A stretch of 64,000 nucleotides of DNA from Nitrospira tepida (GTDB lineage: Bacteria; Nitrospirota; Nitrospiria; Nitrospirales; Nitrospiraceae): assembly GCF_947241125.1 (NCBI RefSeq), contig NZ_OX365700.1, forward strand, positions 1,954,001-2,018,000, written 5' to 3'. Below are positions 43,750-60,838 of this stretch, piece after piece; within the stretch, counting starts at the first letter, position 1; each line of letters starts with the position of its first letter. A program made the position numbers and the translations under genes. The notes under the pieces were generated by a model, which was given only the letters and a program-made list of their open reading frames with translations, did not search any database and was not told the origin of the DNA.

Positions 43750-44529
43750 ATGAAGATTCTCGCTATTGAAACGGCGACAGTTGACCAGAGCGTGGCGATT
43801 CTGGACGACGACCGAGTCCTGGCCTTGACCGAGCAGAACGAGCCCAACAGCCATGCAAAGTGGCTCGTGCCGGCCATCGACCGGGCGTTGAGGGATTGCC
43901 GGCTGTCGTTGTCCGATCTGGACGGTCTGGCCCTATCGATCGGCCCCGGTTCCTTCACCGGACTCAGGGTTGGGCTGGCAACGCTGTTGGGATTCCGTTC
44001 GGTGACAGGGTTGCCGATAGCGGCTGTGCCGACTCTCGAAGCCCTGGCTTCGAATGTGGAGCCTGGGCCATTGCCCATCTGCTCAGTCTTGAAGTGCCGG
44101 CAGGGCGAGCTCTATTGGGCGCAATATGAATGGATCGGCGCCGGCGAGCTGAAGGCCATGCTGGAAGAACGGGTCGGACCACCGGCAGCGATCAGCCAAA
44201 CCCTCCGCAAGCCGACCGTCGTAGTGGGATCGGCCTGGGAACTGTATGGGGATCAGATTGTCACAGCGGCGGACCGCCGCCACGGCCACTTTCAACCGGC
44301 CCCACCGGAACGGATGAAGCCGTCCGCCCTGTCAGTCGGACTCCTGGGTCTGGCGCGTTTGAAGAGAGGCGAGCTATTTGAATCGGGCCAGGCTCCGCTC
44401 TATGTGCAGCGCGCGGAAGCGGAGATCAAGCAAGGGGTGGTGCCGAGCAAATCGAGGCAGATCATCAAGGGACTGGGAAAGGCCAAGAGACGGCCCACCA
44501 AGCAAGCCGGGATCCCAGCCGGTTCATAG
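43750..44529 (+). CDS. tsaB: tRNA threonylcarbamoyladenosine biosynthesis protein TsaB
   Basis: 259 residues. ASKHA-fold protein with MKILAIETATVDQSVAILDD, the SHAKWLVPAIDRAL segment, LSIGPGSFTGLRVGLATLLGF and PIAAVPTLEALA, all typical of TsaB. With TsaD and TsaE it makes t6A37 in ANN-decoding tRNAs. It normally neighbours rimI; here a 450-bp mobile element separates the two. The basic C-terminal tail (KGLGKAKRRPTKQAG) is unusual and short. Confidence 0.95.
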   Translation: MKILAIETATVDQSVAILDDDRVLALTEQNEPNSHAKWLVPAIDRALRDCRLSLSDLDGLALSIGPGSFTGLRVGLATLLGFRSVTGLPIAAVPTLEALASNVEPGPLPICSVLKCRQGELYWAQYEWIGAGELKAMLEERVGPPAAISQTLRKPTVVVGSAWELYGDQIVTAADRRHGHFQPAPPERMKPSALSVGLLGLARLKRGELFESGQAPLYVQRAEAEIKQGVVPSKSRQIIKGLGKAKRRPTKQAGIPAGS

Positions 44530-44550
44530 CCTGTGAGCCAACGAGGGTGG

Positions 44551-45008
44551 CTAACCCGCATTATTCATGAACGCTTCTGCTGCTTTGGCCCATTGCAACA
44601 GAGGAGCAACCGGCGCCCCGATTCGCTGCTGCGACAAGCCAACATGAGAAGTCGAAGGCAAAGTACCTCTCCGCCGCGATGTGATCGGACGCGGCGGCTC
44701 AAGCGAAGCTTGGTATGGCGGGCGTGCTCGCCGCTCGGGTCCGGCCGCCTCACCAACTCGGCGGCGCGCACAGACGTGGCGCTCTTTATTCATCGCGCCG
44801 TGCGCCCCTCGGCGTACTGTTTCAAGTACGCCTTGGTCCTTCGCGGCTGTGCTTGGAGGTACCCATTGCTGGGGGACCCGTTGCGGGTTGTTCCATGCAA
44901 CGGGTCGAACATGCAATGGGTCCAACGCCTGGCGACTGCCGGGTACCCGTTGCTCTTCCCGATGCAACGGGTGCAACGCGACGAATCGTCGTGAATAATG
45001 CGGGCTAA
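44551..45008. mobile_element. MITE-like element, copy A (450 bp) with CTAA target duplication
   Basis: The element spans 44555-45004. Left end CCCGCATTATTCATGA, right end the inverted form of CCCGCATTATTCACGA (15 of 16 match). It is flanked by CTAA on both sides (44551-44554 and 45005-45008), a 4-bp target duplication. It shares GTACTGTTTCAAGTACGCC, CTTGGTCCTTCGCGG and CCTGGCGACTGCC internally with copy B at 60644. It also has extra sequence with six copies of ACCCGTTGC/ATGCAACGGGT-type units (44860-44975) in both orientations. It encodes no transposase. Confidence 0.85.
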
Positions 45009-59210: not shown

Positions 59211-59750
59211 GTGAGTCGGCGCGAACCGGCGAAGGGTGAGGCTTTGCGCATTTGGGGTTCATCGAACGAAGGCAAGGCGCCGGTCGCTCAGCTCATGTGT
59301 GCTGGGCTCCTCCTCCTTGGCCTCGGCGGCTGCGGCAGCAACGACGAGGCTCCTGCCGATACGGCCGCCACGGTGGCCGGCGTGGACGCCGACAACGACG
59401 GCGTCCGAGACGATGTCGAAACCTACATCGATCAAACCTACAGCAGCGGGACAGACGGTCCGACCCGTGACGCCTTGCGGCAATATGCCAGGGCGGTGCA
59501 GGCCGCTATGCTGGATGCGGGGGATCAATCCCGCTCCGTCACCCACGCCGAATCACGGTTCCGGGCGATCGAATGTCTGATGGCCCGGAGGCCGGTGGAT
59601 TTTCCGACGGTCTTCTCCGACTTGCGTGCCCGCATCCTGAATACCGATGCCCGGTCGAAGGCCTATTTGCAGGCCGACGGGCAGGTGACGGCGACTCAGA
59701 TAGCCTTGCTGCCGGCGGACCAGTGGCCGGCTGCCTGTGTAACCCCATGA
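59211..59750 (+). CDS. Putative lipoprotein with calcium-binding-type repeat
   Basis: 179 residues. Signal segment LMCAGLLLLGLGGC, with the lipobox Cys near residue 41; an ATG at 59294 is an alternative start. The mature N-terminus contains VDADNDGVRDDVETYID, an acidic loop of the thrombospondin-3/EF-hand type. The remaining helices (ALRQYARAVQAAMLDAGDQSRSVTHAESRFRAIECLMARR) are of unknown function. It overlaps or abuts the downstream hydrolase gene (ATGA), suggesting that the two lipid- or envelope-located products work together. Confidence 0.65.
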   Translation: MSRREPAKGEALRIWGSSNEGKAPVAQLMCAGLLLLGLGGCGSNDEAPADTAATVAGVDADNDGVRDDVETYIDQTYSSGTDGPTRDALRQYARAVQAAMLDAGDQSRSVTHAESRFRAIECLMARRPVDFPTVFSDLRARILNTDARSKAYLQADGQVTATQIALLPADQWPAACVTP

Positions 59751-59764
59751 GGGCGAAGGAGAGC

Positions 59765-60643
59765 ATGAAGGTGCGGTCTCGCCGCTTGATCATGGTGCTC
59801 GGCCTGCTCGCTTTGCTTGCCGGTACGCCAGACCTCGTGGCCGCCCAGACGGGGCCTCAGCTAGCCTGTCAGAATCCTTCAGCGCCGCGGATCGACATCT
59901 TCTACGTCAACGGAGTCACGACCACGCTCGACGAAGCGCGGGTCAATGCCGGCAAGCTGGAGCAGGAGTTCCTGGGACGCCTTGCGAGCCTGCCGGCCAA
60001 TCTGCAGGGCTTCTGCTACCTCTTTCATCTGAACTACAACCCGACGCACGGGGAGGTGAGGGACTTCCTTGAGGCGGGCGAGCAGCGATTCGGATTTTCT
60101 CCGACGACCTTCTGGCAGGGATTAGAGAGCGTGGCAGTGTTCTCTCCGTTGCTGACGCAACTCCAGGGTCCGATGACCGACGTGAACCAGATCGACCAGG
60201 CGACGATTCAGCGCCATGCGGCACGCTATCGGCAGGAGATCCTGGCTCCCTCCTGCCGGCGGGTGCTGGTGGTGCCACATTCTCAGGGCAATCTCTATAC
60301 GAACGCCGCCTACGACCTGGCCTTTGCCGGTCCTCCGCCGAGTCCTCCGGCCGGCGCCTTGAAGATCGCGGGCGTGGCGACGCCGGATTCGCTGGTGAAG
60401 GGAAACGGGCGGTACCGGTCGTCTTCAACCGATTCGTTGATCAACGTGATTCGTCTGACCCTGTCGAACACCTTGCCGGCCAACACCAATTGGGGCGGCA
60501 ATCTGCTCACCCTGATCGCTCCCGCCTACTCGGGCGGCCACAGCTTCATCGGCTATCTGTCGTTCGATCCCAGCCGAACGGATATTCTGAACGACATCCA
60601 AGCCAATCTGAACGAACTCGCCGCGGTCAACCCCTGTCCCTAG
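59765..60643 (+). CDS. Exported alpha/beta-hydrolase-like protein
   Basis: About 292 residues from ATG 59765 (GAAGGAG just upstream); ATG 59747 overlapping the previous stop is possible, the longer open frame is not. Signal peptide (LIMVLGLLALLAGTPDLVAAQ). The region RRVLVVPHSQGNLYTNAAYDLAF contains a P-H-S-Q-G nucleophile elbow, so Ser is in place for a lipase/esterase-type enzyme. FYVNGVTTTLDEARVNAG precedes it. Substrate unknown. The stop codon TAG is part of the CTAG target duplication of a mobile element, which abuts the 3' end without changing the coding sequence. Confidence 0.7.
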   Translation: MKVRSRRLIMVLGLLALLAGTPDLVAAQTGPQLACQNPSAPRIDIFYVNGVTTTLDEARVNAGKLEQEFLGRLASLPANLQGFCYLFHLNYNPTHGEVRDFLEAGEQRFGFSPTTFWQGLESVAVFSPLLTQLQGPMTDVNQIDQATIQRHAARYRQEILAPSCRRVLVVPHSQGNLYTNAAYDLAFAGPPPSPPAGALKIAGVATPDSLVKGNGRYRSSSTDSLINVIRLTLSNTLPANTNWGGNLLTLIAPAYSGGHSFIGYLSFDPSRTDILNDIQANLNELAAVNPCP

Positions 60644-60838
60644 CCCGCATTATTCATGAACGCTTCTGCTGCAATCTCGGATTCGCCGCTGCGACGGAGC
60701 CTGCCGGCTGGCGTGCTCGCCGCTCAGTCCCTCGACGTACTGTTTCAAGTACGCCTTGGTCCTTCGCGGCTGTGCTTGCCCGTCTCGCCTGGCGACTGCC
60801 CGATTTCGCGACGAACCGTCATGAATAATGCGGGCTAG
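60640..60838. mobile_element. MITE-like element, copy B (191 bp) with CTAG target duplication
   Basis: The element spans 60644-60834, with perfect 16-bp terminal inverted repeats CCCGCATTATTCATGA. CTAG duplicates at 60640-60643 and 60835-60838. Internal parts match copy A, including GTACTGTTTCAAGTACGCC and CCTTCGCGGCTGTGCTTG. No open frame of meaning. Confidence 0.88.

What the first reader, a model, noticed from the sequence alone, without database searches (positions are those of the whole stretch)
44551..45008. Non-autonomous mobile element between tsaB and rimI
Seen: TIRs matching 15 of 16 bases, CTAA duplication, shared internal blocks with a second copy 15.6 kb away. Known: CTAR 4-bp duplications are preferred by IS5-type elements. 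It removed rimI from its usual tight spacing to tsaB, and its right TIR supplies an ATG in frame with rimI (44998). Inference: insertion altered rimI translation or created a new start.
Basis: partly seen in the sequence, partly recalled or inferred. Interest (0 to 1): 0.6.

Follow-up and report, generated by a model that had tools for sequence, protein, structure and literature searches.

The report
Folded Nitrospira mini-transposon between two genes
A short gene-less jumping element has landed between the genes tsaB and rimI of a Nitrospira-type bacterium; it belongs to a many-copy family whose ends match an IS1380-type transposon, whose folded interior is conserved across the bacterial family, and into which a second mobile element repeatedly inserts.

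Summary
It is one of at least 77 delimited copies in this 4.73-Mb genome; the flanks carry a real 4-bp YTAR duplication. It is a MITE, but most likely not an IS5 derivative: the same ends and the same YTAR duplication bound seven 1.7-kb IS1380 elements in related genomes. No IS1380 with these ends was found in this genome. In the 29 other genomes compared, tsaB and rimI are adjacent without the element, so the insertion is derived. An effect on RimI translation is possible but unshown; an in-frame ATG outside the element remains. (1) The 191-210-bp core is conserved across Nitrospiraceae and folds with strong compensatory change (32 of 48 interior pairs changed on both sides), without a sign of a plus-strand RNA. 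(2) An IS110 element is present in ten copies, seven of them at one point in the MITE's central hairpin; its predicted guide loops fit that target. The element is a new variant of a known kind; the rimI story is ordinary.

The parts
44551..44554 (.). left target-site duplication CTAA
44555..45004 (+). MITE, 450-bp form (191-bp core plus inserted hairpin modules), no transposase gene
44555..44570 (+). left TIR CCCGCATTATTCATGA
44989..45004 (-). right TIR CCCGCATTATTCACGA (read on the - strand); carries ATG 44998
45005..45008 (.). right target-site duplication CTAA
44812..44836 (+). central hairpin GCGTACTGTTTCAAGTACGC with the IS110 target point (TACGC-CT-TGG) at its 3' foot; empty in this copy
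   Evidence: hairpin covaries
44861..44926 (+). nested ACCC[AG]TTGC...GCAA[CT]GGGT hairpins inserted in the MITE
44945..44972 (+). further ACCCGTTGC...GCAACGGGT hairpin
   Evidence: G000:C1:1998945-1998972
   Evidence: PF00814
45016..45537 (+). rimI-type GNAT acetyltransferase from the ATG outside the element (44998 is the alternative in-frame ATG inside the TIR)
60644..60834 (+). second MITE copy in the window, 191-bp core form, TSD CTAG

Best explanation
[quoted passage not shown] Shown: matched TIRs, a real 4-bp YTAR duplication, many copies, no transposase, an element-free tsaB-rimI junction in relatives, and the same ends and target on IS1380 transposons in related genomes. Inferred: an IS1380 transposase acting in trans cut the element and pasted it at a YTAR site. 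The interior is not IS1380 sequence but a conserved multi-helix fold kept paired by compensatory change. Its central hairpin is the preferred landing site of an IS110 element, most likely through the guide loops of that element's bridge RNA (inferred). In this genome the family may now be stranded, because the IS1380 copies found here have other ends.
For: 77 TIR-bounded elements, 40 with exact 4-bp duplications; shuffled flanks give 16.7 on average and at most 30 in 10,000. Where both flanks are YTAR (51), the outer bases agree in 47 of 51 and the inner in 44 of 51, so the duplication is 4 bp and not TA plus a TIR base. Seven IS1380 elements of 1691-1707 bp (L110-L116) have these ends; 5 of 7 have exact YTAR duplications, 2 of 7 differ at one base. 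29 of 29 other genomes lack the element at tsaB-rimI. Fold. IS110 in the hairpin.
Against: No IS1380 copy with these TIRs was found in this genome: the four nearly full-length ones have CCCTATTCTCCGGCTAAGC ends. Beyond the TIR the MITE shares no visible sequence with the IS1380 ends, so it is not a simple deletion derivative. IS1380 and MITE TIRs differ at several positions except at the left end of L110, and matches with up to 4 of 16 mismatches were accepted. No movement was observed. IS5 transposases were not searched for with a profile.
Confidence: 0.87

Rival explanations
1. The MITE belongs to an IS5-type transposon, as the first reader proposed from the CTAR duplication.
For: A 4-bp YTAR duplication is confirmed and is also described for IS5-type elements (recalled).
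Against: The transposases identified between such ends are IS1380. Three further long TIR-to-TIR stretches (L262, L269, L283; ORFs of 305-369 aa) were not profiled; I read them as host genes between separate copies. IS5 was not searched by profile.
Confidence: 0.06
2. The compensatory changes come from template switching or conversion between the arms of DNA palindromes, not from selection for a fold.
For: G-T and A-C mismatches are about equal or tilt to A-C (46 against 71 interior cells), so there is no plus-strand RNA sign; REP-like hairpins nest freely in the element.
Against: The changes lie in eight helices including long-range ones (columns 25-44 with 170-188), which a short-hairpin process explains less easily; the fold and many unpaired columns are conserved across genera.
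Confidence: 0.35
3. The conserved interior is a functional RNA or regulatory structure carried on a transposon-like frame (minus strand if any).
For: 32 of 48 interior pairs with changes on both sides, 0 of 500 shuffles as high; conserved across genera.
Against: No Rfam match at gathering score; no promoter or terminator pattern; A-C cells exceed G-T only weakly.
Confidence: 0.25
4. The insertion changed RimI translation or gave it a new start.
For: ATG 44998 is in frame; the SD-like GAGGGTGG at 44543-44550 is now 465 bp from ATG 45016.
Against: ATG 45016 is intact and outside the element; the SD-like motif would have been 11 or more bases away even in the empty site; orthologues start at variable places.
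Confidence: 0.25

Closest known systems
IS1380 family (PF13701, DDE_Tnp_1_4)
   Same: TIR sequence and 4-bp YTAR duplication of seven full-length members in related genomes
   Different: No transposase; interior unrelated; the IS1380 copies of this genome have other ends
Bacterial repeats with conserved secondary structure, e.g. bcr1 of Bacillus cereus and ERIC (recalled, not read)
   Same: Short, many copies, paired interior with compensatory change (as recalled)
   Different: IS1380-type ends; a core spread across most genera of one family; inserted hairpin modules; IS110 landing site
IS621 and other IS110 elements that insert in REP palindromes (PMC11208160, passages seen)
   Same: Site-specific insertion in a dispersed palindrome; non-coding region before the gene with loops that fit the target; short core
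   Different: Target is the central hairpin of a MITE; three of ten copies sit elsewhere; RNA not shown here
piggyBac (PMC10813416, passages seen)
   Same: IS1380 transposases serve as its outgroup; TTAA and, rarely, TTAG or CTAA duplications
   Different: Eukaryotic, with a transposase of 500 aa or more

Membership tests
MITE | matched terminal inverted repeats | tested here: met
   15 of 16
MITE | target-site duplication | tested here: met
   CTAA both sides; family 40 of 77 exact
MITE | short, no transposase gene | tested here: met
   450 bp, too short for a transposase of this kind; its mechanical ORFs were not run against a profile library
MITE | many copies | tested here: met
   at least 77 delimited copies
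MITE | moves in trans | not testable with these tools
   needs an assay
IS1380-derived | TIR shared with an IS1380 element | tested here: met
   L110 left end 16 of 16; L110-L116 at both ends within 4 mismatches
IS1380-derived | same target duplication | tested here: met
   YTAR at 7 of 7, exact duplication in 5 of 7
IS1380-derived | matching autonomous copy in the same genome | tested here: not met
   five PF13701 hits; four copies with other TIRs, one fragment
IS5-derived | TIR shared with an IS5-family element | not tested
   no IS5 profile search was run
IS110 (the guest element) | DEDD_Tnp_IS110 plus Transposase_20 | tested here: met
   E 9e-23 and 4e-21
IS110 (the guest element) | bridge RNA in the long non-coding end with target-matching loops | tested here: inconclusive
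   180-nt region before the ATG; TACGCCT and GGCCGAG flank a hairpin in its predicted fold; not expressed or assayed

The most novel reading that the evidence does not exclude
An old, family-wide structured element of Nitrospiraceae: its interior fold is under selection as a folded nucleic acid, it spreads with borrowed IS1380 ends, takes up REP-like hairpin modules, and serves as the programmed landing site of a bridge-RNA-guided IS110 element, a three-layer nesting of mobile elements.
Probability: 0.3. Interest if true: 0.72.

Novelty: new variant of a known kind. Interest (0 to 1): 0.47.

Why it matters
It corrects the transposon family, gives Nitrospira genomics a repeat family that crosses genera, and supplies a large natural set of related hairpins for asking whether MITE folds are selected or arise by palindrome conversion. 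It also offers a natural target series (ten insertions, variable flanks) for testing how a bridge RNA tolerates mismatches.

Tried and rejected
IS5 parent: not supported, but not searched by profile. TA-only duplication with a TIR base (IS630-like): rejected by flank agreement. The large TIR-bounded copies as autonomous parents: rejected, they hold an IS110 element inserted in a MITE. Own-genome IS1380 as parent: other TIRs. Plus-strand RNA: no support from G-T against A-C. Rfam: three weak matches, none at gathering score. RAYT origin of the ACCC[AG]TTGC hairpins: eight Y1_Tnp hits, no complete hairpin in the 8 loci held, only half-sites in three of them. Search of relatives' IS110 flanks: a MITE half at the gene's 3' side in 2 of 29 other loci (L296, L300), a separate MITE piece in one more (L318), none in the rest. 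Literature listings showed nothing on this family; a MITE review (PMC10969869) has no hit for IS1380, Nitrospira, IS110 or bcr; PMC12542641 concerns other MITEs (passages); PMC3281130 lists an IS1380 element with a 5-bp repeat (passages), which differs from the 4 bp seen here.

Rows dropped: two chance TIR pairs (355049, 2637374) before the count of 77; a few of the 77 have a poorly placed end (for example 2337382). For the alignment, 97 elements were collected, 88 were left after dropping those with ACCC[AG]TTGC hairpins, N or duplicates, 59 after thinning at 93%, 55 after removing three with an unrelated interior and one with a hairpin insert, and 51 of these 55 were aligned. The structure was derived in part from this alignment, which favours the percentage paired over the slid controls.

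Full report
What is there. The element spans 44555-45004 with TIRs matching 15 of 16 and CTAA on both sides. It lies between tsaB (43750-44529) and a rimI-type acetyltransferase. The window is G000:C1:1954001-2018000 of a single 4.73-Mb contig. The genome holds 88 forward and 85 reverse TIR sites within two mismatches; the reversed pattern gives none. From the listed places I delimited 77 elements of 36 to 1540 bp, most of 191, 209-210 or 239 bp. Listings are capped, so 77 is a lower bound.

Duplication. 40 of 77 have identical 4-bp flanks; shuffling gives 16.7 on average and never more than 30 in 10,000. Of the 51 with YTAR on both sides, the outer base agrees in 47 and the inner base in 44, while the two TIR-adjacent bases do not correlate (p = 0.16). 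The duplicated target is therefore four bases, YTAR.

Parent. The exact TIR occurs in 102 of 147 genomes of the family, in 16 of 22 genera, with zero control hits. PF13701 (IS1380) occurs in 54 of 147. Of 30 loci with that transposase, 7 (L110-L116) have TIRs of this type at both ends, 1691-1707 bp apart, with YTAR outside: exact in 5 and one base off in 2; four more (L120, L124, L125, L138) show one such end next to CTAG. L110's left end is identical to the MITE TIR. This genome's own four IS1380 copies end in CCCTATTCTCCGGCTAAGC, and a fifth hit is a fragment. The interior of the MITE is not seen in the IS1380 ends. So the ends are of IS1380 type; trans-mobilisation is inferred, and a matching donor in this genome was not found.

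Insertion at rimI. The family search found a RimI match in 136 of 147 genomes. In 30 loci read (this one and 29 others), tsaB lies directly upstream in all 30; none of the 29 others has a TIR; spacers to candidate starts range from overlap to about 190 bp. By subtraction of 454 bp the empty site here had 32 bp between the tsaB stop and ATG 45016. ATG 44998 in the TIR is in frame, six codons further out. An SD-like GAGGGTGG (44543-44550) is now far from rimI. Whether translation changed is open.

Spread. A 31-base pattern of the left end plus interior, scanned over one genome for each of 84,980 species, hit 81 stretches; all 80 listed are titled Nitrospira, Nitrospirae or Nitrospiraceae, except one called uncultured Nitrosospira from an isolate named CMX. 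N. moscoviensis is among them.

Fold. In 51 aligned cores (17 from this genome, 9 from unnamed and 25 from named genomes) RNAalifold predicts 46 pairs, 21 with a change on both sides. A structure extended by hand, TIR excluded, has 48 pairs: 93.0% of cells paired (81.6% in shuffles, 30-37% when slid), 32 pairs with changes on both sides (18.9 in shuffles), covariation score 0.291 against 0.121, with 0 of 500 shuffles reaching any of these. All nine pairs of the variable hairpin 57-65/76-84 change on both sides. As single-stranded DNA, the 450-bp and 191-bp copies fold better than all shuffles (z -6.6 and -4.4). Against an RNA of the plus strand: G-T cells 46, A-C cells 71. Cells are not independent, and related sequences inflate such scores, so the fold is shown better than its cause.

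Modules. The 450-bp form is the core with inserted blocks. One kind is a hairpin of mostly 27-30 bp, ACCC[AG]TTGC...GCAA[CT]GGGT, of which the genome has 69 pattern matches; of the 50 listed ones that I placed, 30 lie in delimited MITEs and 20 outside.

IS110 guest. Ten near-identical copies exist. Seven sit in MITEs of different subtypes at the same point; three sit elsewhere (L288, L291, L292). In the orientation of the gene, the flank on one side ends TACGC in 9 of 10 (TAAGC in one) and the other begins CT[CT][AG]G in 8 of 10 and CTCGC in 2 of 10. Read with a CT core, the MITE target is TACGC-CT-YRG. The 180-nt region before the gene contains TACGCCT and, across a small hairpin, GGCCGAG, which pairs with CTCGGCC and, with wobbles, with CTTGGTC. 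That layout resembles the target-binding loop described for IS621 (PMC11208160, passages). The match is short, was found by looking for it, and is not tested. In relatives only 2 of 29 IS110 loci showed a MITE half at the 3' side of the gene.

Verdict. The conserved fold and the IS110 landing point are the parts that a specialist would want to follow.

Noticed in passing
window 60640-60643: The CTAG duplication of the 60644 copy supplies the TAG stop of the ORF 59573-60643; YTAR targets contain TAA or TAG, so insertion at a stop codon can keep the stop.
   Followed up: no
L284, L285, L286, L287, L289, L290, L293: IS110 element inserted at one point of the MITE hairpin in seven copies of different subtype.
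   Followed up: yes
L288, L291, L292: Three IS110 copies outside MITEs, one of them (L291) inside another repeat-like stretch with an AAAAAGGCCGTC...GACTTT pattern.
   Followed up: partly
G000:C1, 69 places: REP-like hairpins ACCC[AG]TTGC...GCAA[CT]GGGT inside and outside MITEs, sometimes nested in one another.
   Followed up: partly
L174 705-1570: An IS1380 fragment with other TIRs begins about 40 bases beyond the right end of the 450-bp MITE at 2346815.
   Followed up: no
L106 1072-2390: A 1319-bp stretch bounded by MITE-type TIRs and CTAG on both sides without a recognisable transposase ORF; possible capture of host DNA.
   Followed up: no
L148, L155, L156, L166: Other, longer sequences with repeat-like character fill the tsaB-rimI spacer in some other genomes, so this gap may take insertions repeatedly.
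   Followed up: no
L073 209-244, L055 201-276: Minimal TIR-to-TIR elements of 36 and 76 bp.
   Followed up: no
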